Source of the DNA: Bacteroidales bacterium
GTDB taxonomy: Bacteria > Bacteroidota > Bacteroidia > Bacteroidales > JAIPAH01
Assembly (NCBI GenBank): GCA_021738485.1
Contig: JAIPBX010000023.1
Coordinates: forward strand, 1-34,346
Length of the DNA stretch: 34,346 nucleotides
Reading direction: 5' to 3'
Part shown: positions 227 to 23,127 of the stretch, in pieces
How the letters are laid out: each line of letters opens with the position of its first letter
How positions within the stretch are numbered: the first letter of the stretch is position 1
The notes under the pieces: model-generated
The model's database searches: none
What the model saw: only the letters and a program-made list of their open reading frames with translations
Told to the model about the DNA's origin: nothing
Made by a program: the position numbers and the translations under genes

Positions 227-1087
227 ATGAAAGAATTAAACAAAAGATTAATAACATTAACGATTTCGGTGCTTCTGGCAGGAGCATTGTATGCGCAATC
301 ACCTGTCATTAAAGCCGGTGAATTTAAATCTGCTGCTAAAGAAGATAACGTGGTTGTAGTTGATGCGAATACCGCTTCAACCTTTAACAGTATGCACGTG
401 AAAGATGCAGTAAATATCCCTCACCTTGAGTTATACAAAGACGGGGATATCAAAGGCATCCTAAAGGAACCCGACAAACTTGCTGACTACTTCGGAAGTA
501 AAGGCATTGCCACGGATAAGAAAATCATCATTTATGATGATGGGTCACAAAAATATAATAGCCGCGTGTACTGGACGCTGAGATATTTAGGAGCGGATAA
601 CGTCCATTTGCTTCATAAAGACATGAACAAATGGCGGAAAGAAAGAATTCGCCTAACACGAAGAGGGAGTAAACCGGCTTCGGCCGACTTTACACCCAAG
701 GTTCAGGATCAGCTCATAGCCAATGCTGCTGAAGTCAAAAAAGGAATCAATGACAATAATGTGATTCTTCTCGACTCCAGAGCTAAAGGGGAATATGAGG
801 GAAAAGAGAAGAAAAGCAAAGGCCATATCAAAAGTGCCGTAAATATCAACTATAAGGATATTTTGGATGAAAATGGAGCCTTTCTGCCAAAAAGTGACAT
901 GAAAAAAATATTTGAAGATAAAGGCATCACACCGGACAAAGAAATCATAGCTTACTGTAAAACTAGTGTAAGAGCAGCCGTAAATTTTGTTGCTTTAAAA
1001 GATATTCTTGGATATCCTAACGTTAAGGTATACGACGGAGCATACCTCGAGTGGGAGTCTAAATATCCAAACTTAATAGAGCAATAA
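227..1087 (+). CDS. Secreted tandem-domain rhodanese / sulfurtransferase
   Basis: Signal peptide (LITLTISVLLAGALYAQS), two rhodanese-like domains (VVVVDANTASTFNSMHVKDAVNIP; VILLDSRAKGEYEG...GHIKSAVNI), catalytic loop AYCKTSVRAA in the second domain; purine-rich RBS (aaaaggagc) upstream. Confidence 0.88.
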   Translation: MKELNKRLITLTISVLLAGALYAQSPVIKAGEFKSAAKEDNVVVVDANTASTFNSMHVKDAVNIPHLELYKDGDIKGILKEPDKLADYFGSKGIATDKKIIIYDDGSQKYNSRVYWTLRYLGADNVHLLHKDMNKWRKERIRLTRRGSKPASADFTPKVQDQLIANAAEVKKGINDNNVILLDSRAKGEYEGKEKKSKGHIKSAVNINYKDILDENGAFLPKSDMKKIFEDKGITPDKEIIAYCKTSVRAAVNFVALKDILGYPNVKVYDGAYLEWESKYPNLIEQ

Positions 1088-5940: not shown

Positions 5941-8670
5941 TTATTTAAAATAAAACTCAGGCAAGACACATTTATCACTCCGCTCATCCAAAAGTTTCTG
6001 AAAATCCTCCAGGCTCCTTTGCATCAATTCAGAATCCTGGTTGTGGCACTCAAGGCAGGATCCTACTAATAGAATTCGCTCCTGTTCCTGCTGATTAAAC
6101 GGCCTCATATTTTTCCGGGTAGCCGATTGATCATTCCGGCCCTCCATAAATCCCGTCCAGGCATCTTCCGGTAAACCGTCATACTCATTATCAGAAAATC
6201 GGGGAGTAAACTTCCATTTCCCCCGCGGGCCATCGGTTTCATATTTCAGCTCTCCCCTTCCGTAGCCAAGCGCCAGCGAGCTGTTGTGGCAGGACTTACA
6301 ATCCCGTCCTTTTGTTGAAATAGTATGGGGTGAAGACGGGGCAAACAACCTGTGATGAATCATTTTCTTGTCTTCATCTTCAGTCCAGGTCGATTTATCG
6401 ATTGAAAGCACCATGCCAGGAGCAAAGCTGGTAACAGTCCTTCCTGTATCGTGCTCATCGATCCCCAGAGTAGGAGGATCGGCTAAAAAGCGGCCGATAT
6501 ACTCCACCCATGAACCTTTTGTTTCTTTGTATTCCAGTAAGTCAAATCCGTTTTCTACATCTTCATCAAATTCATTGTGGCATCCTATGCATTGCGGCGC
6601 CCACGAGGTATGACATGCCGAACAAGTGATATCCGAATGGGCATCACCCCGGGTGCAAATTTCTGCAGGTGAACTTAAAGTGAAGGATTTTTTTGTGTTT
6701 TTACCCACCATGTGAGCGCTATCTCCATCATACCAGGTGTTGGTCAGTGCCTGCCCAGCTTCATTTGAAACCAGGTATTTTTTATCCTTTGAGAGATGAG
6801 CGCGCAGGTTAATAATTTTTTGTTCTTCGGCGGTGAGCTCTTCATAGCTTTTTGTTTTGGGCTGCCCTTCAAAATGGCAATCCTTGCAACTCACTTTTTG
6901 CTGTTGCTCCTTGTGGGCATATAAATTCCCGTCACCCATAAGTTCATACGAAGTGTGGCAATCGACGCATTCCATTCCGAGCTGATGATGCACATCGGCT
7001 TCCACATACTTAAAAACGCGATCATCCTGCAAAATGCGGTATTTATTGGTATCCGACTCTTCCACTTCTTCTTTCTCTAGCTGAGTTTCATTCCACCCTT
7101 CATAATTGGTTGAAATCCTGCCGGAGCGGCTATGGCAGCCAAAACAGTGTTTATCGGAAACATTAAGCGATACTTCAGGATGAAAATGCGTCAACATCGT
7201 ATCGGTATCTTGCTGTAAATACTTTTGCAACCCCTGTTCGGCTTTCTTGTCATAATTCAGATGACAAGCATTACACCCCCCACCGCGGGTCATCTGATCT
7301 ATCACTCCAAATTCTCTTTTTTCATTCCCCAGGTGGCAATTGGCGCAAAGATTCCTGAAGTGCTGGTCAGCCGCGCTATGCGTAAGATTTTGTATATGAG
7401 CCAGCGCCGACAAGTCTTTCTCTTCATTAAAGACAAACCGATCCACGGTAATCATCCCGCTGTTGGTGGTCATGATATTCTTATCCATCCGGTCAGTAAT
7501 ATCCGGATGACATTCAGCGGTGCCGCAGGTTTTATCAGCAACGCTGAGATTTCCGGGAATAGTAACCATTTTCTCATGCGCCTCATTCTTATCCAGGGTA
7601 AAGGGATTGCCCAGATGACAGGAAGCACATCCGATACCCTGCGGGTTGTGAGAATCAGTAAGCCCGCTCATATCCTCATGACATACCATGCAAGCCTCCG
7701 CCCTGCCCCTAACCTTGGGGATCTCGCTGCCATGGTATTCCGACAATGTCAGAGGAATACGCTGGACTTCAAAGGGGTTATAAGCTTCTGTTGCGTATTC
7801 CGGCTCCCATTGCCAGTTCTCTCCTCTGAAAAAATAGCCTGTCACCGTCAAAGCACTGTATATCACTAAAGCTATCAATAAAAACCGCTTTAGAAGAGCA
7901 GCAGTTTGAAGATTAACTTTTGGAATAAAGTAAATGACAACCAGTAATGCGACAACAATCAATAAAGCCCATCCGGCCTGGCTCATCCAATGAAGGATTT
8001 CCTGCAGACCTACAAAATACCAGGGGCCTTTCACCACGGTATCGATGTTGTCATGAAGCGGTGCCTGAAAGAAGACACTCAAAACAGCAATTATAAGCGT
8101 AGTAATAACCGTAGTATGAGCTTTTGTCCAAATGTAGCGGGCGTGCTCATAAACTACTATAAATATAAATACCGTTGCAGTTGCCACATGATGCACATAA
8201 AGCAACTGAAAACTTTCCTTACTTCCCAAAAGAATATAAGATAAAAAATCTCCTATTAATGGTATATCCCTGATAAGTGCATCCAGAATCCGTCGTGCCT
8301 GAAGACTATCAGCATCACCCTTTAAAATAAAGCCTGAGAGCATCACAAAAAATACGGCAATCAATGACAGGGTTAATCTTAACCATGCTTTAGGTTTAAC
8401 GCGGGATTCAGTATTTCGATACAAATGATCAATAATATGAATAATGGTAAATACCAGGAAAAACTGACCCGACCAATAATGAAAATTTCTGAAAAATGCA
8501 GCGGTAGGATTGTTGATAATAAACCGGCTGATTGATTCATAAGGACTGGCTACATCATAAGGGATGGCAAGAGCGATACCGGAAAGAGTACAAATTAATA
8601 AACTGGCTGTGGCTATGGCACCAAAAGTGTCATACAAAAACCCTTTGAATATAGACTTCCATTTCATCAC
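5941..8670 (-). CDS. Cytochrome b (b6-like plus subunit IV-like) fused to a multiheme c-type cytochrome (11 CXXCH + 1 CX4CH)
   Basis: N-terminal cytochrome b helices with paired His (HYWSGQFFLVFTIIH; HHVATATVFIFIVVYEH), KGPWYFVGLQEILHW at the PEWY position, then a soluble region with CMVCH, CASCH, CGTAECH, CANCH, CNACH, CFGCH, CVDCH, CKDCH, CSACH, CIGCH, CKSCH, CLECH. Listed start is GTG; ATG at 8667 is likely. Confidence 0.92.
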   Translation of the reverse strand: MMKWKSIFKGFLYDTFGAIATASLLICTLSGIALAIPYDVASPYESISRFIINNPTAAFFRNFHYWSGQFFLVFTIIHIIDHLYRNTESRVKPKAWLRLTLSLIAVFFVMLSGFILKGDADSLQARRILDALIRDIPLIGDFLSYILLGSKESFQLLYVHHVATATVFIFIVVYEHARYIWTKAHTTVITTLIIAVLSVFFQAPLHDNIDTVVKGPWYFVGLQEILHWMSQAGWALLIVVALLVVIYFIPKVNLQTAALLKRFLLIALVIYSALTVTGYFFRGENWQWEPEYATEAYNPFEVQRIPLTLSEYHGSEIPKVRGRAEACMVCHEDMSGLTDSHNPQGIGCASCHLGNPFTLDKNEAHEKMVTIPGNLSVADKTCGTAECHPDITDRMDKNIMTTNSGMITVDRFVFNEEKDLSALAHIQNLTHSAADQHFRNLCANCHLGNEKREFGVIDQMTRGGGCNACHLNYDKKAEQGLQKYLQQDTDTMLTHFHPEVSLNVSDKHCFGCHSRSGRISTNYEGWNETQLEKEEVEESDTNKYRILQDDRVFKYVEADVHHQLGMECVDCHTSYELMGDGNLYAHKEQQQKVSCKDCHFEGQPKTKSYEELTAEEQKIINLRAHLSKDKKYLVSNEAGQALTNTWYDGDSAHMVGKNTKKSFTLSSPAEICTRGDAHSDITCSACHTSWAPQCIGCHNEFDEDVENGFDLLEYKETKGSWVEYIGRFLADPPTLGIDEHDTGRTVTSFAPGMVLSIDKSTWTEDEDKKMIHHRLFAPSSPHTISTKGRDCKSCHNSSLALGYGRGELKYETDGPRGKWKFTPRFSDNEYDGLPEDAWTGFMEGRNDQSATRKNMRPFNQQEQERILLVGSCLECHNQDSELMQRSLEDFQKLLDERSDKCVLPEFYFK

Positions 8671-9062
8671 TACGCAAACCTAATAATAATTTTACCTCCT
8701 TCTATCCGGTAATCGAGATTTTTAAGCGGTCGCGGAGCAGGACCGGATATGGGTTCACCACTCTGGTTATACCTTGAACCATGACACGGACACACTAAAT
8801 GGCTACCTTCGGCTTTTGCTATTCGACAGCCAAGATGAGTACATTTTGATGAGAAAACTTTAATCTTATTCGAATCATTGACAATAATGCAATCTTCAAA
8901 GAAATTATATCCATTATTTAAACTATTCTTATCAACTTCTACAACTTTTTGCTGAGACAGGTCCTGATGCCTTCCTGTCAGTTTTACCAGGAAATACAAG
9001 AAAATGAGAAGTAATAAATTTCCGGCTTGCTTAAAAAACTGTTTTCTACTGATACCCTTCAA
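8670..9062 (-). CDS. Rieske [2Fe-2S] protein
   Basis: CTHLGC...CPCHGSRYNQSGEPISGPAPRPL Rieske motifs, N-terminal TM with twin-arginine-like SRKQFFK; overlaps the cytochrome b gene by 1 nt. Confidence 0.93.
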   Translation of the reverse strand: MKGISRKQFFKQAGNLLLLIFLYFLVKLTGRHQDLSQQKVVEVDKNSLNNGYNFFEDCIIVNDSNKIKVFSSKCTHLGCRIAKAEGSHLVCPCHGSRYNQSGEPISGPAPRPLKNLDYRIEGGKIIIRFA

Positions 9063-9392: not shown

Positions 9393-11642
9393 ATGAAAAC
9401 GAGAAGGGATTTCATAAAAATATCAGCACTTGGGGCCGGGGGACTTGCTGCGGCTGGAGGGGCTTATAAATGGGCTAAAGGCTCGGAGATTATGGATAAG
9501 CTTTCAGGAGAAGCGGCTGATAAAAACCTGAAACTTAACAGGTACCCCACCTATTGCGAAGTGTGCTTTTGGAAGTGTGCAGGATGGACTCATACTGATG
9601 ACTCAGGAAACATCATCAAAATTATCGGAAATGATGATGACCCGCACAGCAACGGAAGAATGTGCCCGCGTGGAACCGGTGGTATAGGAATGTATTATGA
9701 CGAGGATCGTCTGAAGACACCTCTGATACGCACCACAAAAAATGGGAAGCAGACCTTCCGAAAGGCCTCCTGGGATGAAGCTCTGGAAGTCGTAGCTAAA
9801 AACTTTAATAAAATCAAACAAAAATACGGTCCCGAGGCTGTGGCCGGATTTTTCCACGGATCACCGGGTTCTCATCTGGGACATACCCTGCATGCTTTTG
9901 GCTCACACACCGAAGCTCATCCATCCTATGCCCAATGTCGCGGACCGCGTGAAGTGGGCTTTGCCGCCACTTTCGGCAGCGGTGTGGGATCGCCTGAACC
10001 CACAGATATCAGAGATACCAAATGCATGGTTCTGATAGGTTCGCATATCGGCGAAAACATGCACAATGGACAAGTCCAGGAAATGGCTGATGCAATAGAT
10101 AAAGGAGCTTCGATTATCACGGTGGATCCACGGTTCTCGACAGCTGCCAGTAAATCAAAATTCTGGTTACCCATCAAACCATCCACGGATATCGCTCTTC
10201 TGATGGCCTGGATTCATGTGATCATCAACGATGAGCTATATGATAAAAAATACGTTGAACAGTATGCCTATGGCTTTAAAGAGCTGAAAGAACACGTAAA
10301 AAAAATGACACCGGAATGGGCTTACGGTATTACAACCATTGAACCCTCATTAATCCGGAAGACCGCTTATGAAATGGCCGCAGCATCGCCGGCAGCCATT
10401 ATTCACCCAGGGCGGCATGCTACATGGTATGGCGATGACACCCAGCGCGAACGAGCTATTGCAATTCTCAATGCATTGCTGGGAACATGGGGAAGACGTG
10501 GCGGATTCTATTTTAAGGAAGCAATGAGCTTACCTAAATATCCCACACCTGAGCCGCCGAAACCAAAATGGGACTGGAAAGATATTCACGGCGATAAATA
10601 TCCTCTGGCAGCACTGCCCGTATCCAATGCCCTGGTGGAGGCTACCATTGCTGAAAATAAACCAAAGCATCAAATCAGAAGCTGGTTAGTAGCAGGGACA
10701 AATCTGCCATTAACCTTGCCAAATAAGGAGCAAACATTAAAAGCTATACAGGAGCTGGAATTCATGGTGGTGGTAGATACCATGCCTATGGAGGTGACAG
10801 GATATGCTGATGTGGTGCTTCCCGAATGTACTTACCTTGAACGCTATGATTACATTCGAACCTCGCCCCATCGCGAACCCAACATAGCCTTGAGGATGCC
10901 GGCAACAAATCCTAAATACGAGAGCAAACCGGCCTGGTGGATTGCTAAAAAACTGGGTGAAAAATTAGGACTGGAAAAATATTTCCCCTGGAAAGATATC
11001 GAGGAAGTATTGGACTGGCAATTGTATCAGGTAGGTTCTTCACTGGAAGAAATGCAAAAAGTAGGGGTGAAAAAGTTTGAACGGGCTTACGGAGCGCCCT
11101 ACCTCAAGCAAGGAGAAGATTATGAATTCTATACGAACTCGGGTAAAATCGAGTTGTATTCTACTGAAATGGAGAATGCCGGTTTCGACCCGATGCCCTC
11201 TTTCACCCAGCATGAGGAACCACCCAAGGATTTTTACCGGTTGATATACGGTCGTACACCCGCGCATACTTTTAGCCGCACGGCCAACAATCCCAATCTG
11301 GTTGATTTGAAAGCCGAACCATTACTGTGGATTAATCCCAAGGTAGCTAGCATTTGGGGAATTAAAAACGAACAATATATCTGGTTGAAAAACCAGGATG
11401 ATAAAATTACTCAGTTCCCGGTGAAGGTGAGAGTCACCGAACGAATTCGCTGGGATTCAGTTTTTATGCCTCATGGATTCGGGCATAGCAATAAGCGTCT
11501 GAGCCGGGCCTACGGTAAAGGCGCAAGTGATGCAGAGTTGATAACAAATGTAAACGTAGACCCGGTAATGGGGGGAACAGGCATGCGTGCCAATTTTGTG
11601 ACCTTCCTGACCGAAGAACCAAAAACGGAGACTAGATCATGA
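9393..11642 (+). CDS. Tat-exported molybdopterin oxidoreductase, PsrA/PhsA-like catalytic subunit
   Basis: Tat signal TRRDFIKISALGAGGLAAAGG; [4Fe-4S] motif CEVCFWKC..GRMC; MPRGTGG-type loop (CPRGTGGIGMYY); candidate Mo-ligand Cys in SYAQCRGPREVG (codon 9936-9938); C-terminal RIYGR-like domain. Substrate not determinable. Confidence 0.9.
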   Translation: MKTRRDFIKISALGAGGLAAAGGAYKWAKGSEIMDKLSGEAADKNLKLNRYPTYCEVCFWKCAGWTHTDDSGNIIKIIGNDDDPHSNGRMCPRGTGGIGMYYDEDRLKTPLIRTTKNGKQTFRKASWDEALEVVAKNFNKIKQKYGPEAVAGFFHGSPGSHLGHTLHAFGSHTEAHPSYAQCRGPREVGFAATFGSGVGSPEPTDIRDTKCMVLIGSHIGENMHNGQVQEMADAIDKGASIITVDPRFSTAASKSKFWLPIKPSTDIALLMAWIHVIINDELYDKKYVEQYAYGFKELKEHVKKMTPEWAYGITTIEPSLIRKTAYEMAAASPAAIIHPGRHATWYGDDTQRERAIAILNALLGTWGRRGGFYFKEAMSLPKYPTPEPPKPKWDWKDIHGDKYPLAALPVSNALVEATIAENKPKHQIRSWLVAGTNLPLTLPNKEQTLKAIQELEFMVVVDTMPMEVTGYADVVLPECTYLERYDYIRTSPHREPNIALRMPATNPKYESKPAWWIAKKLGEKLGLEKYFPWKDIEEVLDWQLYQVGSSLEEMQKVGVKKFERAYGAPYLKQGEDYEFYTNSGKIELYSTEMENAGFDPMPSFTQHEEPPKDFYRLIYGRTPAHTFSRTANNPNLVDLKAEPLLWINPKVASIWGIKNEQYIWLKNQDDKITQFPVKVRVTERIRWDSVFMPHGFGHSNKRLSRAYGKGASDAELITNVNVDPVMGGTGMRANFVTFLTEEPKTETRS

Positions 11643-12172
11643 GATATGCAATGGCTATAGACACCAATAAATGTGTCGGATGTGCAGACTGCGTAGTTGC
11701 CTGTCAGACGGAAAATAATGTACCTGTAGGATATGCCCGCGATTGGATTGCGGAAATCGTAGCTGGTACCTATCCGAATGTAGAATTGGAAATTCGTTCG
11801 GAACGATGTAATCACTGTGATAACCCCCCATGCGTGAGGGCTTGCCCAACGGGAGCGAGCCATGTGGTGGAAGGAGGCATTGTCAAGGTGACTCCCGAAG
11901 AATGTATTGGTTGCGGCGCCTGTATTCAATCCTGCCCTTACGATGCTCGCTTTTCACATCCCGACGGATATGTCGATAAATGTACTTTCTGCGATCATCG
12001 CGTCAAAAAAGGTCAGGACCCTGCCTGCGTAGCAGTTTGCCCGACGAAATGCATGTACTTTGGAGACCTGGACGATCCCAGCAGTGATGTATCAGAGGCT
12101 ATGAAAAACAGGAAATATAAAGCCCTTGCTCCAGAGGCAGGTACCGATCCTCATATTTTTTATTTAATGTAA
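11639..12172 (+). CDS. 4x[4Fe-4S] ferredoxin electron-transfer subunit, PsrB-like
   Basis: Four cysteine clusters: CVGCADCVVAC, CNHCDNPPCVRAC, CIGCGACIQSC, CTFCDHRVKKGQDPACVAVC; ATGA overlap with upstream gene. Confidence 0.93.
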   Translation: MRYAMAIDTNKCVGCADCVVACQTENNVPVGYARDWIAEIVAGTYPNVELEIRSERCNHCDNPPCVRACPTGASHVVEGGIVKVTPEECIGCGACIQSCPYDARFSHPDGYVDKCTFCDHRVKKGQDPACVAVCPTKCMYFGDLDDPSSDVSEAMKNRKYKALAPEAGTDPHIFYLM

Positions 12173-12191: not shown

Positions 12192-13133
12192 ATGACAGAA
12201 GAACTTTTGACAAGCGGCAGGATGAATCCCAACATCGATCCGTATCTGAATATTTGGCACTGGCATATTCCGGTTTATCTTTTCCTGGGAGGATTGGCCG
12301 CCGGAATTCTTTTCTTTGCCGCTTATTACACCATCACCGGTAAAGAGAAGCAAATGCCGACCACTGTTAAATGGGCTACTTTTATTGTACCGGCAGCGTT
12401 AATAATCGGTCTGATAGCTCTATTTCTGGATTTAAAACACCAGATGTATTTCTGGCGGCTGTACACTACAGTCAGGCTGGAATCTCCGATGTCCTGGGGC
12501 GCCTGGACCCTGATGCTTATCACACCGCTTAGTATCATCTGGGTGGCTACTTATATGAAAGAAGTAGTCCCTGGTTGGCAATGGAAATGGAAGTTTCTGG
12601 ACACCGCGGAGACCTGGATCATTAAAAATAAAAAAGGGCTGGCATGGGCGCTGATTGTGCTGGCTGTTATTCTGGGTATCTATACGGGTATCCTCCTTTC
12701 GGCCTTTAATGCCCGACCGCTATGGAACGTATCCATTCTTGGACCACTATTTTTGGTATCCGGATTATCGACCGGTGCAGCAGTCATTATCTGGATGACC
12801 AAAAACCATCATGAACGCAAAATCATGAGCCGCATCGACATCCTTTTGATAATCATTGAGCTCTTCCTGGTGACGCATATGATTATGGGATTCCTCGCCG
12901 GCTCGGAAGTTAAAATAGCCACGGCTCAGCTTTTCCTTGGCGGGCAATTTACCGTTTCATTCTGGGTATTCTTCGTAATACTTGGATTGGTCTTCCCCTT
13001 GGTTTTGGAAACATTAGAGCTCAGAGGTTTTAAAATTCCAGTGGCAGTTCCGGCTATACTGATACTTTTCGGCGGATTGGTATTCCGTTTCATTATAGTA
13101 GAAGCAGGGCAGTTTACAAGATATTTGTATTAA
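12192..13133 (+). CDS. NrfD/PsrC-family integral membrane quinone-interacting subunit
   Basis: WHIPVYLFLGGLAAGILFFAAYYTITGK NrfD signature and multiple TM helices, immediately after the ferredoxin subunit. Confidence 0.9.
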   Translation: MTEELLTSGRMNPNIDPYLNIWHWHIPVYLFLGGLAAGILFFAAYYTITGKEKQMPTTVKWATFIVPAALIIGLIALFLDLKHQMYFWRLYTTVRLESPMSWGAWTLMLITPLSIIWVATYMKEVVPGWQWKWKFLDTAETWIIKNKKGLAWALIVLAVILGIYTGILLSAFNARPLWNVSILGPLFLVSGLSTGAAVIIWMTKNHHERKIMSRIDILLIIIELFLVTHMIMGFLAGSEVKIATAQLFLGGQFTVSFWVFFVILGLVFPLVLETLELRGFKIPVAVPAILILFGGLVFRFIIVEAGQFTRYLY

Positions 13134-13151: not shown

Positions 13152-13670
13152 ATGAACGACAAAAGCAATAAATACATCAGTCCGTACCTGGGAGGCTTTT
13201 TATTGGGCCTTCTATTGCTGGTTACCTTTTTCATTACTGGACGAGGACTAGGAGCCAGTGGTGCAACAAAATCAACAGTAGTTACAGTAGTGGATGCGGT
13301 ATCGCACTCCCACGCCACTGAATCAGCATACTACAGCAAATTCATCAGTGACGATAAGCATCCTATGAATACATGGCTCACATTTGAAGTCTTGGGCATC
13401 CTGGCCGGCGCCTTTTTATCAGGGGCTTTAGCCGGAAGGGTGCGTTTCAAAACCGAACACTCCCCCAAAATAACAAGCAAAACCCGGTTGCTGGCGGCAG
13501 CTGGAGGAGGTATTCTCTTCGGGTTTGGCTCTCAGTTGGGCCGGGGGTGCACAAGCGGCGCAGCTTTAAGTGGGATGGCCACGCTTTCAACAGCCGGTTT
13601 TGTGACCATGCTGGCCATTTTCGGGACCGGCTTTATTGTTGCCTATTTCTTCCGAAAACTATGGATATAA
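13152..13670 (+). CDS. YeeE/YedE-family sulfur transport protein (half-size)
   Basis: GSQLGRGCTSGAALSGMATLS motif and TM helices; 172 aa. Confidence 0.85.
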   Translation: MNDKSNKYISPYLGGFLLGLLLLVTFFITGRGLGASGATKSTVVTVVDAVSHSHATESAYYSKFISDDKHPMNTWLTFEVLGILAGAFLSGALAGRVRFKTEHSPKITSKTRLLAAAGGGILFGFGSQLGRGCTSGAALSGMATLSTAGFVTMLAIFGTGFIVAYFFRKLWI

Positions 13671-13699: not shown

Positions 13700-14296
13700 A
13701 TGGGACCACTCATACCACAAGAAATAATTGACCCGCAATGGAACAGTGTCATTGCTTTGCTTATAGGGATGGCTTTTGGGTTCATCCTGGAATCATCCGG
13801 GTTCTCATCTTCAAGAAAATTAGCCGGCGTGTTTTATGGTTATGATTTCGTCGTTTTAAAGGTTTTCTTTACGGCAGCCATAACCGCAGCACTGGGATTG
13901 TATTACTTCGATTATGCCGGCTGGATCGACGGGGATTTACTCTACATTAATCCTACGTATCTTACGGGAGCTATAGCCGGAGGAGTAGTCATGGGAATAG
14001 GTTTCGTACTCGGCGGCTTTTGTCCCGGAACCAGTACCTGTGCTGCCGCAATAGGAAAAATTGACGGTTGGGTATTTTGGGGAGGAATGCTTGTCGGCGT
14101 GTTCATTTTCTCCGAATTCTTCCCATTGCTCCAGGAAGCATATACCAGTAATGCTTTGGGACCAATCAGGGTATATGAGTCGCTAGGCCTTAACGCTTCA
14201 ACTTTCATCATGATATTAATTGTCGTTGCCCTGGCGGCCTTTTATGTAGCTTCAATGATTCAGAAAAAAATCAGACCTAAAAGAGTAGAATTTTAA
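13700..14296 (+). CDS. YeeE/YedE-family sulfur transport protein (half-size)
   Basis: GFILESSGFSSSRKLAGVFYGYDFVVLKVFFTA and GGFCPGTSTCAAAIGKIDG motifs; 198 aa. Confidence 0.87.
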   Translation: MGPLIPQEIIDPQWNSVIALLIGMAFGFILESSGFSSSRKLAGVFYGYDFVVLKVFFTAAITAALGLYYFDYAGWIDGDLLYINPTYLTGAIAGGVVMGIGFVLGGFCPGTSTCAAAIGKIDGWVFWGGMLVGVFIFSEFFPLLQEAYTSNALGPIRVYESLGLNASTFIMILIVVALAAFYVASMIQKKIRPKRVEF

Positions 14297-14306
14297 AAAT
14301 ATTATT

Positions 14307-14921
14307 ATGAATACACGGTATATCATATTGGCAATACTTCTTCTTGCCCTGGGCGCCGGAACAATGATTCTCCCGGACAAAGCAGAAAAAGAAGAGCTGC
14401 CGGCCGAAAGATTATTACTGGACATAACCAGCGACACCCGATTCAAAGAGCCAATTTTTGTGGCACAAAAAATCATAGAAAAAGACCCTGTATATACACT
14501 AATTGATGTACGAACTTCAGATCAATATAACGAGTTTCATTTGCCGGGAACCATTAATATTCCTTTGAAGGAGTTTAACAATCCCGAATATCAGGGTTAT
14601 CTGGACCGAGAGGTAAAGAATAACATATTTATATCCAATGGAAGTTTAAAAGCTGATCAGGCATGGTTTCTTTGCCGCAGGAAGGGATATGAAAACAATT
14701 ATGTGATGCAGGGAGGTCTGAACCAGTGGGTCGAAAATATCCTTCGCCCGACTCCTCCGCCTGCAACTGCATCAAAAGCTGCCTTTGAAGAATACAACAG
14801 ATGCAAAGCTGCCAGCCTGTACTTTGGTGGCGGCTCAATGGATATAAGCACAGAGGTTAGAAAAGAAGAGTTACCGGTCAAACGAAAGAAAAAAGAGCGG
14901 AAAGTGGCCGGAGGATGTTAA
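14307..14921 (+). CDS. Membrane-anchored rhodanese-like protein lacking the catalytic Cys, with C-terminal KRKKKERKVAGGC tail
   Basis: N-terminal TM; VYTLIDVRTSDQYNEFHLPGTINIPL; catalytic loop FISNGSLKADQAWFL has Ser at the Cys position; tail ends in GGC-stop. Confidence 0.88.
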   Translation: MNTRYIILAILLLALGAGTMILPDKAEKEELPAERLLLDITSDTRFKEPIFVAQKIIEKDPVYTLIDVRTSDQYNEFHLPGTINIPLKEFNNPEYQGYLDREVKNNIFISNGSLKADQAWFLCRRKGYENNYVMQGGLNQWVENILRPTPPPATASKAAFEEYNRCKAASLYFGGGSMDISTEVRKEELPVKRKKKERKVAGGC

Positions 14922-14940
14922 TCGATAAAATAAATGAATC

Positions 14941-15573
14941 ATGAAAAAAATAAATAATCTGATAGCAGGAGCTATAGCTTTCGTTGCGGTAATATTTATT
15001 GCGATGATTAGTATTAATCAACCCGAGCATCCTTACGAACTTAGTATTGATGAAGCCTTGGATACTACTCTGACGATGACCGAAATGGAAGTATTCCCGG
15101 AAGATGTTCCCATGATGCTGGAAGACTCCACTTCCAATCATGTTTTTATAGATGTGAGGAATCCCGGTGAATTTGTAAAAGGACATATCGAGGGAGCAAA
15201 AAATATCCCTGTCAACAGTATTCTTCAGGAGAGCAGTCTTGAATTTTTCCGGGAAAAAGATTCGGCCACAACGGCTATCCTTTATGGAAAAGACCAAATA
15301 CAGGCCAATGCCCCATGGATGTTGTTAACTCAACTTGGCTTTAATAATATTAAGGTGATGAAGGGAGGCTATGATTATTATTCAACCCATTCGCTGGATA
15401 TCTATGATATGCCCGCTATACCTGAATATATGATTGAGGAACCAATGTATGATTATCAACAGGTCGTGGAAGAAACACCAGGGATTGGAGATGTAAAAGT
15501 AAAAACTGAAGGACCTGAAAAAGTAGTCCCCAAGCGTAAGAAAAAAGAACGTAAGGTTGAAGGAGGCTGTTAG
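14941..15573 (+). CDS. Membrane-anchored rhodanese-like protein lacking the catalytic Cys, with C-terminal KRKKKERKVEGGC tail
   Basis: N-terminal TM; HVFIDVRNPGEFVKGHIEGAKNIPV; catalytic loop ILYGKDQIQANAPWML has Gly at the Cys position; tail ends in GGC-stop. Confidence 0.88.
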   Translation: MKKINNLIAGAIAFVAVIFIAMISINQPEHPYELSIDEALDTTLTMTEMEVFPEDVPMMLEDSTSNHVFIDVRNPGEFVKGHIEGAKNIPVNSILQESSLEFFREKDSATTAILYGKDQIQANAPWMLLTQLGFNNIKVMKGGYDYYSTHSLDIYDMPAIPEYMIEEPMYDYQQVVEETPGIGDVKVKTEGPEKVVPKRKKKERKVEGGC

Positions 15574-21519: not shown

Positions 21520-23127
21520 ATGAGACTTAAAGGTTTTTTAACAATAATGTTGGCATCATTTTTACTTATGGGGTGCAGTACATCATATCAAACAAGTACG
21601 TTACCCAATGATGATGCTTATTACGATCCTTTCACACCCGGCCGGCAGGTTGAAAAGCAAGCTACAGCAGCTAAAGGAGAGCAAGCTGATATGCAGGAAG
21701 AAAATGCAAAGGTAGCTGATGCAAAATCGGGCATGAAGGAAGTTTCACCGGACAGTAGCCAGGTAGCTTCGGGATCGGCATACGACGATTATTACAACTA
21801 CGAATACACTTCACGAATTCGACGCTTTCATACTGATTATTACTTCGATAGTTATTACCACGATTATTATACCAACTCTTATTGGTACAGCCATAATCCG
21901 CATGCTTTCGGGACAAGCATTTACGTAGGATATAACCACTTTGGTCCTCATTACAGAAACCCATGGTATTATGGTTCAGCAAGCTGGTATGGATACGGTG
22001 GCTACTGGGGTTCTTCATGGTGGGGATATAACAATTGGTATGGATATAATCCCTATAATTACTATGGCTATGGATATGGCTATCCCGGTTACGGCGGATT
22101 ATACAGCTATAACCTCGGATACAGTAGCGGTTACATGGCAGGCCTTTACAGCGGAGGATATTATAGTGGTGTATACAATAATCCTTACGATGTCAATTCC
22201 AGTTACTATTACGGAAAAAGAGATGATCGCGGAGGAGGTGCCGGCTTAGGCTCAACAGATTCGAGGGGAAGAAGAGATCTTTCATCCGGAGCACGTAAAA
22301 AGGCTGATAATAAGAATGAGCAAGTTCAACAAGCCGCTCAAAGGAGTGAAAGAGCCAGAGCCGCTCAGAAAGATAACAACCGGGCTGAAAAAGGTCAGCG
22401 AACAAGAGTTGCTGAGGAGCGGCAAAATGCTAATCGACAAGAGAGGGCAGAGCGATCAAACCGATCACAAACTGCCGAAAATCGCCGGGATACACAAATT
22501 GAAAGGTCTCAACAAGCTTCGCCGGAAAACCGCCAGCGGGCTCAAAACAATGCACAAAGAGAATTTCAAAAGCCTGCGAACAATCGACAGCAAAACGAAG
22601 GCAGCAGCAAGCGATATTCATCGGCTCGTAGCTCAGAAAGGAATTATGTGCGGCCTTCGGAGCGTAGTGGTGACAACCTTAATAAACCGAAACGCTATCA
22701 AACTCCGAATTATGCAAAACCACGTTCCAGCAGGGAATACAGCAGTCCTGGTACACGAAGCACCTATCAGAGGACTTCTCCTTCCAGAAAGAACCAGAGT
22801 ATAAATCGTAGCGGGTCCAATACCAAACGGTATAACAGACCTTCAAGTCGCTCCTACGACAACAATCGCTCACGATCCTCTTCCAGGGATTATAACCGGT
22901 CATCAAGGAGTTCAGGAAATGATCGCTCCTATAACCGTTCAAGCAGTTCCTCTTCAAGAAATTACAACAGGAGTAGCAGCTCCTCGCGAAGCAGGGGATC
23001 ATCAAGTAGTTCAAGCGGACGAAGCATTAATCGATCAAGCAGTTCGTCGAGCAGTAGCTCATCAAGCGGCCGTTCAGGAAGCAGTTCCGGTAGTAGCCGT
23101 TCACGCGGTGGCGGAGGTAGAAAGTAA
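21520..23127 (+). CDS. Lipoprotein with Tyr/Gly/Trp-rich middle and Ser/Arg-rich low-complexity C-terminus
   Basis: Lipobox LLMGC; WYGYGGYWGSSWWGYNNWYGYNPYNYYGYGYGY region; Arg/Gln/Asn-rich linker; extended SSSSRSRGSSS tail. TACATTTG (21483-21490) may be the -7 element. Confidence 0.8.
   Translation: MRLKGFLTIMLASFLLMGCSTSYQTSTLPNDDAYYDPFTPGRQVEKQATAAKGEQADMQEENAKVADAKSGMKEVSPDSSQVASGSAYDDYYNYEYTSRIRRFHTDYYFDSYYHDYYTNSYWYSHNPHAFGTSIYVGYNHFGPHYRNPWYYGSASWYGYGGYWGSSWWGYNNWYGYNPYNYYGYGYGYPGYGGLYSYNLGYSSGYMAGLYSGGYYSGVYNNPYDVNSSYYYGKRDDRGGGAGLGSTDSRGRRDLSSGARKKADNKNEQVQQAAQRSERARAAQKDNNRAEKGQRTRVAEERQNANRQERAERSNRSQTAENRRDTQIERSQQASPENRQRAQNNAQREFQKPANNRQQNEGSSKRYSSARSSERNYVRPSERSGDNLNKPKRYQTPNYAKPRSSREYSSPGTRSTYQRTSPSRKNQSINRSGSNTKRYNRPSSRSYDNNRSRSSSRDYNRSSRSSGNDRSYNRSSSSSSRNYNRSSSSSRSRGSSSSSSGRSINRSSSSSSSSSSSGRSGSSSGSSRSRGGGGRK

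What the first reader, a model, noticed from the sequence alone, without database searches (positions are those of the whole stretch)
14307..15573. Two adjacent catalytically dead rhodaneses share a terminal KRKKKERKV(A/E)GGC tail: a possible Cys swinging arm
Seen in sequence: both proteins have an N-terminal TM and a rhodanese-like fold. The active-site Cys position is Ser in one (FISNGSLK, codon 14634-14636) and Gly in the other (ILYGKDQ, codon 15286-15288). Each has a long linker and then a nearly identical 13-residue tail ending exactly in ...GGC-stop (14880-14918 and 15532-15570). Across the 13 tail codons, 5 are identical, 7 differ synonymously and 1 differs non-synonymously (Ala/Glu). 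That pattern suggests selection on the peptide, not a recent DNA copy. Established knowledge: SoxY carries sulfur intermediates on a C-terminal GGCGG swinging arm, and DsrC on a C-terminal Cys arm. Inference: these are periplasmic, membrane-tethered scaffolds in which the terminal Cys replaces the lost rhodanese Cys as sulfur carrier, passing sulfane sulfur between YeeE/YedE, the tandem rhodanese and the PsrA-like enzyme. A docking or anchoring role for the tail is also possible.
Basis: partly seen in the sequence, partly recalled or inferred. Interest (0 to 1): 0.87.

Follow-up and report, generated by a model that had tools for sequence, protein, structure and literature searches.

The report
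Dead rhodaneses with terminal-cysteine sulfur arms
Two membrane-tethered proteins that have lost the usual active site of their enzyme family end in a flexible tail finished by a single cysteine; this tail is kept almost without exception across the bacterial phylum Bacteroidota, only next to a sulfur transporter and a sulfur-reducing enzyme, so it is probably an unrecognised arm for carrying sulfur atoms outside the cell's inner membrane.

Summary
In pooled homologous operons (80 loci chosen independently of the tail), 126 of 130 Rho1 and 96 of 105 Rho2 proteins end in GGC or GGCx. Of the nine other Rho2, two end in close variants, four keep a Cys in another tail, three lack it. The terminal Cys is as conserved as the rhodanese fold residues, while the catalytic position is Ser or Gly. 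In the window's genome no other real ORF ends in GGC. Within a genome the Rho1 and Rho2 tails match (68% versus 28% between genomes), although their domains do not. The invariant is GGC, not KRKKK: operons without Psr lose the charge and keep GGC. And the partner tied to the tail is the split YeeE/PmpAB sulfur transporter, because some lineages fuse the PmpB half to the tailed rhodanese. A catalytic tandem rhodanese often carries the same tail, so it is not simply a replacement for a lost Cys. Best explanation: a periplasmic sulfane-sulfur carrier arm, convergent with SoxY GGCGG, serving PmpAB and, where present, PsrABC. Sulfur carriage is inferred, not shown. No family or paper found here describes it.

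The parts
14307..14921 (+). Rho1: N-terminal TM anchor, rhodanese-fold domain with Ser in place of catalytic Cys, about 60-residue linker, C-terminal GGC tail
   Evidence: AF2 model pLDDT 85.6 with rhodanese fold and low-confidence tail from about residue 174; Foldseek top hits all rhodanese domains
14880..14918 (+). Rho1 tail KRKKKERKVAGGC
   Evidence: G202 G203 C204 invariant in 22 diverse homologues; C204 99.2% of 131
14634..14636 (+). Ser110 at the rhodanese catalytic-Cys position of Rho1
   Evidence: S in 122/131 Rho1, C in 1
14941..15573 (+). Rho2: second membrane-anchored, catalytically dead rhodanese with tail; C210 is its only cysteine
15532..15570 (+). Rho2 tail KRKKKERKVEGGC
   Evidence: only D71, R73 and C210 invariant in 24 diverse Rho2; C210 98.1% of 108
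15286..15288 (+). Gly116 at the rhodanese catalytic-Cys position of Rho2
   Evidence: G 61, A 13, S 11, C 9 of 108
13700..14296 (+). PmpB-like protein (N-terminal half of YeeE, Sulf_transp); Cys108 invariant 97/97; fused to the tailed rhodanese in other lineages
13152..13670 (+). PmpA-like protein (C-terminal half of YeeE, Sulf_transp); Cys133 invariant 94/94
12192..13133 (+). PsrC/NrfD-type membrane quinone subunit
   Evidence: PF03916 8.5e-47
11639..12172 (+). PsrB-type 4Fe-4S subunit
9393..11642 (+). PsrA/PhsA-type molybdopterin enzyme with twin-arginine leader RRDFIK
   Evidence: best NCBIfam PhsA thiosulfate reductase, 467 bits, below the equivalog cut-off of 694
227..1087 (+). Separate secreted tandem rhodanese without tail; possible but unproven sulfur donor

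Best explanation
Rho1 and Rho2 are periplasmic, membrane-anchored pseudo-rhodaneses that carry sulfane sulfur on a C-terminal Cys at the tip of a flexible arm. A catalytic rhodanese (tandem Rho3 where present) or polysulfide/thiosulfate would load the terminal Cys as a persulfide. The arm presents it to the split YeeE-type transporter PmpAB, whose two channel cysteines are invariant, and in operons with PsrABC also to or from that polysulfide/thiosulfate reductase. The dead rhodanese domain would be a scaffold or receptor, and the Lys/Arg stretch an adaptation to the anionic substrate or to Psr. Shown: fold, N-terminal anchors and periplasm-type topology signals, near-invariance of the terminal Cys, operon exclusivity, matched tails within a genome, fusion to PmpB, invariant PmpAB Cys. 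Inferred: persulfide carriage, direction of transfer, identity of the docking site.
For: Loci sampled independently of the tail by a PsrC C-terminal signature plus the order-level set: Rho1 126/130 GGC/GGCx, 3 EGC, and the one apparent loss (L154) is a frameshift with ...KKAVQGGCS* in the next frame. Rho2 96/105, plus 2 variants and 4 with a Cys in FDExCPDLN. Terminal Cys 99.2% and 98.1% conserved, and the only Cys of the protein in 67/126 Rho1 and 47/96 Rho2. Tail exclusive to the operon. Within-genome tail identity 0.675 versus 0.284, 0 of 2000 permutations, while the domains are 0.271 versus 0.261; codon identity at shared tail residues 0.54 versus 0.48 at the domain rate, so mostly not recent conversion. 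The extra residue after Cys also matches between Rho1 and Rho2. Psr-less operons Rho3-PmpA-PmpB-Rho2 keep GGC but lose charge. PmpB-Rho-GGC fusions in 10 of 30 phylum-level loci, all 30 tailed. PmpA C133 94/94 and PmpB C108 97/97. N-terminal positive TM anchors; lipobox-like in 11/108 Rho2 and 31/50 Rho3. Tail of low confidence, probably disordered, in AF2. SoxY GGCGG has an established sulfur-binding function (PMC6067878); SoxY-Cys hand-over to SoxT/YeeE cysteines has been called conceivable (PMC11582611).
Against: No direct evidence that the Cys carries sulfur. Three Rho2 (L096, L190, L202) lack it, and a third of Rho3 lack it. A cytoplasmic TusA acceptor was not found in several genomes that have the operon, including highly complete ones, so an import route ending at TusA is not general. 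The channel cysteines of YeeE are about 7 angstroms apart, which makes direct Cys-to-Cys relay questionable (PMC11582611). Matched tails could also reflect docking without sulfur chemistry.
Confidence: 0.6

Rival explanations
1. The tail is a docking element only: it holds the pseudo-rhodaneses to PmpAB/PsrABC, and the Cys forms a structural disulfide or binds a metal rather than carrying sulfur.
For: Tails of paralogues match within each genome, as expected for a shared binding pocket; a weak extra correlation of tail distance with PmpB distance (partial r 0.18 versus 0.05-0.08 for PsrC and PmpA).
Against: The docking-like part varies freely between genomes and even loses its charge, whereas GGC is nearly invariant; Gly-Gly-Cys at a flexible tip is the shape of a carrier arm; Cys is kept even where GGC is replaced (FDExCPDLN).
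Confidence: 0.2
2. The arm serves PsrA only, as a membrane-tethered analogue of the Wolinella Sud polysulfide carrier; the YeeE pair is incidental.
For: In most loci the genes follow psrABC, and the Lys/Arg-rich stretch is more positive where Psr is present (Rho2 +4.2 versus +1.8, Rho3 +3.0 versus -0.9).
Against: Operons without Psr keep PmpAB and the GGC tail; the fusions are to PmpB, not to Psr subunits.
Confidence: 0.12
3. The terminal Cys is a site for lipid or other C-terminal modification, or a sorting signal.
For: Short conserved C-terminal motif after a basic stretch.
Against: The proteins already have a TM or lipoprotein anchor; the motif is confined to one operon, not spread over unrelated proteins; there is no following hydrophobic segment and one extra residue after Cys is allowed.
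Confidence: 0.05
4. The similarity is an artefact of recent tandem duplication or gene conversion without function.
For: Codon identity in tails is slightly above the domain rate (0.54 versus 0.48), so occasional conversion is possible.
Against: Phylum-wide conservation of the Cys, near-saturated synonymous differences, and domains only 27% identical.
Confidence: 0.01

Closest known systems
SoxY (SoxYZ sulfur carrier, C-terminal GGCGG arm)
   Same: Periplasmic carrier with a Cys flanked by glycines at a flexible C-terminus; some tails here read GGCG; SoxY has been proposed to hand sulfur to YeeE-like SoxT (PMC11582611).
   Different: Here the scaffold is a rhodanese fold, membrane-anchored, usually with nothing after the Cys, in a Psr/PmpAB operon without Sox genes among those examined; convergent, not homologous.
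PmpAB / YeeE-TsuA / SoxT transporters
   Same: The operon encodes a split YeeE pair with one invariant Cys each, as described for PmpA/PmpB (PMC11582611).
   Different: The usual described partners are cytoplasmic TusA/YeeD or periplasmic thioredoxins; tailed pseudo-rhodaneses, or their fusion to PmpB, were not found described.
Sud of Wolinella succinogenes
   Same: Periplasmic rhodanese-type protein feeding polysulfide sulfur to Psr (from general knowledge).
   Different: Sud uses its catalytic rhodanese Cys; here that Cys is lost and a terminal Cys exists.
DsrC
   Same: Sulfur carried on a C-terminal Cys arm (general knowledge).
   Different: Cytoplasmic, different fold, two arm cysteines, DsrAB partner.
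Secreted rhodaneses near psr or yeeE genes in sulfur disproportionators (Desulfurivibrio dismutans, PMC12142623)
   Same: Secreted multi-rhodanese sulfurtransferase in a Psr operon; other periplasmic sulfurtransferases beside YeeE.
   Different: A multi-domain sulfurtransferase; no terminal-Cys tail reported in the passages read.

Membership tests
Rhodanese (PF00581) fold family | Rhodanese domain above the curated cut-off / rhodanese fold | tested here: met
   Pfam 50.1 and 61.7 bits versus 22.2; AF2 and Foldseek for Rho1
Catalytic rhodanese sulfurtransferase | Cys in the active-site loop | tested here: not met
   Ser110 and Gly116; across the family Ser 122/131 and Gly 61/108
SoxY | SoxY domain / homology | tested here: not met
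   Pfam and NCBIfam give only rhodanese-type families
SoxY | C-terminal Gly-flanked Cys arm | tested here: met
   GGC or GGCx terminus; analogy of anatomy only
SoxY | Covalent sulfur intermediates on the arm Cys | not testable with these tools
   needs mass spectrometry
PmpAB split YeeE (genes 13152 and 13700) | Two short Sulf_transp proteins matching the C- and N-terminal halves, one conserved Cys each | tested here: met
   profile positions 175-309 and 8-157; C133 94/94 and C108 97/97
PhsA thiosulfate reductase (gene 9393) | NCBIfam equivalog cut-off of 694 bits | tested here: not met
   467 bits; a Psr/Phs-type enzyme of undetermined substrate
YTD cluster of sulfur disproportionators | TusA and DsrE-like genes beside YeeE | tested here: not met
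   no TusA match in G000 at 78% completeness; none of the nine window proteins scanned matched TusA/DsrE in Pfam
C-terminal sorting signals (CTERM-type) | Motif shared by many unrelated proteins of a genome, with a TM segment beside it | tested here: not met
   only the two rhodaneses in G000; no TM beside the motif

The most novel reading that the evidence does not exclude
A phylum-wide periplasmic sulfur relay in which pseudo-rhodaneses, having given up their own active site, present a persulfide on a C-terminal Gly-Gly-Cys tip directly to the mouth of a split YeeE channel (in some lineages as one fused polypeptide), so that sulfane sulfur is handed on between a catalytic rhodanese, the arm, the channel cysteines and a polysulfide/thiosulfate reductase.
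Probability: 0.35. Interest if true: 0.85.

Novelty: new variant of a known kind. Interest (0 to 1): 0.74.

Why it matters
How zero-valent sulfur is moved outside the cytoplasm and across the membrane is an open question; the YeeE/SoxT literature read here leaves the periplasmic donor speculative. A conserved, tagged donor candidate that is sometimes fused to the transporter half makes the question directly testable, including in cultured species (Maribellus luteus, Lutibacter citreus, Maribacter luteus, Hyunsoonleella jejuensis). It would also be a convergent reinvention of the SoxY arm on a dead enzyme scaffold, and it gives annotators a simple marker for these operons.

Tried and rejected
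The search for related loci with the diverse Rho1 alignment failed (no stretch conserved enough), so a PsrC C-terminal DNA signature, independent of the tail, was used instead. Plasmid tblastn gave only generic rhodaneses. Simple co-variation of GGCx with columns of PmpA, PmpB and PsrC gave only clade-like signals, and the mirror-tree partial correlations are weak, so the docking partner is not identified this way. A general C-terminal sorting or lipid tag was rejected because the motif is operon-exclusive. Recent duplication was rejected on synonymous divergence. The idea that KRKKK is the functional element was rejected because Psr-less and several other lineages lose it. Literature searches found no description of a GGC-tailed rhodanese.

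Full report
Observation. Both proteins are rhodanese-domain proteins by Pfam. AlphaFold2 models (45 and 36 aligned sequences) give confident rhodanese-type folds with a long N-terminal helix and a poorly defined tail. Foldseek for Rho1 returns rhodanese-type domains at the top.

Neighbourhood. The window lies in a 3.1 Mb, 78%-complete genome of a Bacteroidales-like organism (named neighbours). The operon reads PsrA/PhsA-type Mo enzyme with a twin-arginine leader, PsrB, PsrC/NrfD, then two halves of a YeeE-type sulfur transporter (13152: C-terminal half, PmpA-like; 13700: N-terminal half, PmpB-like, with the half assignment following PMC11582611), then Rho1 and Rho2. Each transporter half has one invariant Cys (94/94 and 97/97).

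Conservation. An order-level search found homologues in 107 of 295 genomes, with most alignments reaching the last residue and often two adjacent genes. Regions from 100 such loci and 80 further named loci chosen only by a PsrC C-terminal signature were pooled, with identical proteins removed. Near the YeeE genes, 126 of 130 complete Rho1 end in GGC or GGCx; three end in EGC; the remaining one (L154) is a frameshift that reads ...KKAVQGGCS* in the neighbouring frame. After removing four mis-assigned ORFs, Rho2 has 96 of 105, two close variants, four with an alternative FDExCPDLN ending that still has a Cys, and three without (L096, L190, L202). In alignments of 131 Rho1 and 108 Rho2 the terminal Cys is 99.2% and 98.1% conserved, level with the structural Asp/Arg of the fold, and it is the only Cys of the protein in 67 of 126 and 47 of 96. 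The catalytic position is Ser in 122 of 131 Rho1 and Gly in 61 of 108 Rho2, with Cys in 9 Rho2.

A third player. Many relatives add a tandem rhodanese (Rho3, often a lipoprotein, 31/50 lipobox-like) with catalytic Cys retained (39/50 and 46/50). Of 48 complete Rho3, 32 end in the same tail. So the tail is not merely compensation for a lost active site; it may let a catalytic member and two dead members use one shared acceptor.

Specificity. The basic GGC pattern was searched in 60 genomes: 24 of 40 operon genomes hit, 35 of 38 listed matches lie in the operon, and none of 20 operon-less genomes hit. In the window's own genome all 39 GGNGGNTGYTRR sites were read: only the two rhodaneses are real ORFs ending in GGC, and the reversed control pattern gave 46 sites. 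This argues strongly against a general sorting tag.

What is invariant. Loci with the order Rho3-PmpA-PmpB-Rho2 and no Psr genes keep GGC but lose the Lys/Arg stretch (for example SKPKIIETKMIVSGGC; net charge of the last 25 residues +1.8 versus +4.2 for Rho2 and -0.9 versus +3.0 for Rho3). A phylum-level search found 48 of 396 genomes; all 30 fetched loci (the window among them) are tailed, ten of them as a fusion of PmpB to the tailed rhodanese with the rhodanese's own TM segment kept in those read in full, and others ending KKKKREGC. Fusion and the Psr-less operons make PmpAB the constant partner.

Matched tails. In 87 loci with both tails, the 11 residues before GGC are 67.5% identical between Rho1 and Rho2 of the same genome, against 28.4% between genomes and 27.6% even between orthologous Rho1; no permutation of 2000 reached the observed value. 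The rhodanese domains show no such effect (27.1% versus 26.1%). The extra residue after Cys also agrees in all but three loci. Codon identity at shared tail residues is 0.54 against 0.48 expected from the domains, so recent gene conversion explains little. The simplest reading is selection by one common partner site; the weak mirror-tree signal for PmpB is only suggestive.

Mechanism. N-terminal charges and lipoboxes place the tail in the periplasm (hydropathy only). About 65 residues separate the domain from the C-terminus, the last 30 or so being flexible. I infer a sulfane-sulfur carrier arm: loaded by a catalytic rhodanese or by polysulfide, unloaded at PmpAB and possibly exchanged with PsrABC. 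The direction of flow is not determined; TusA, the usual cytoplasmic acceptor, was not found in several genomes that have the operon. The anatomy matches the SoxY GGCGG arm (PMC6067878), and hand-over from the SoxY Cys to YeeE-type SoxT cysteines has been considered conceivable although the distances are a problem (PMC11582611).

Novelty. No Pfam or NCBIfam model covers Rho1/Rho2 beyond generic rhodanese-domain families, and no paper in the searched library was found to describe such a tail. The library lacks most subscription journals, so an earlier description elsewhere cannot be excluded. I rate it a new variant of a known kind: a sulfur-carrier arm on a new scaffold and in a new context.

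Limits. Genome sets overlap in part and sequences are phylogenetically related, so percentages are not independent counts. Many loci are from metagenome assemblies, including those labelled Chlorobiota and Neomarinimicrobiota, which may be mis-binned. ORF starts are approximate. Nothing here shows that the Cys carries sulfur.

Noticed in passing
5941-9062 (- strand): A 909-aa protein with a cytochrome b-like TM part and many haem-type CxxCH motifs plus a Rieske protein lies divergent to psrA; the same pair recurs beside the operon in L041, L053, L055 and L056.
   Followed up: no
L107, L124, L128, L131 (Rho2 C-termini): A subgroup replaces GGC of Rho2 by FDExCPDLN while Rho1 and Rho3 keep GGC; the Cys is retained near the same place.
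   Followed up: partly
L160:13896-14405 (-): A further short rhodanese outside the operon, beside a tandem rhodanese, ends KKASSGGCGD.
   Followed up: no
Rho1 active-site loop, window 14634-14642: The loop is a conserved Y/F-S-N-G/D in place of the catalytic Cys loop, suggesting a retained binding pocket rather than a degenerate one.
   Followed up: partly
Rho2 of L039, L040, L042, L044, L046, L050: A subgroup has an extra conserved Cys in ACGPW after the dead active-site loop.
   Followed up: no
L108, L143, L151, L156, L158, L161, L162, L164, L165: A second operon type without Psr genes: mostly Rho3, PmpA, PmpB, Rho2 with weakly charged or uncharged GGC tails (L108 differs in gene order and is cut).
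   Followed up: partly
21520-23127 (+): 535-aa lipoprotein-like ORF with a very Tyr/Gly-rich middle and a Ser/Arg-rich low-complexity C-terminal half.
   Followed up: no
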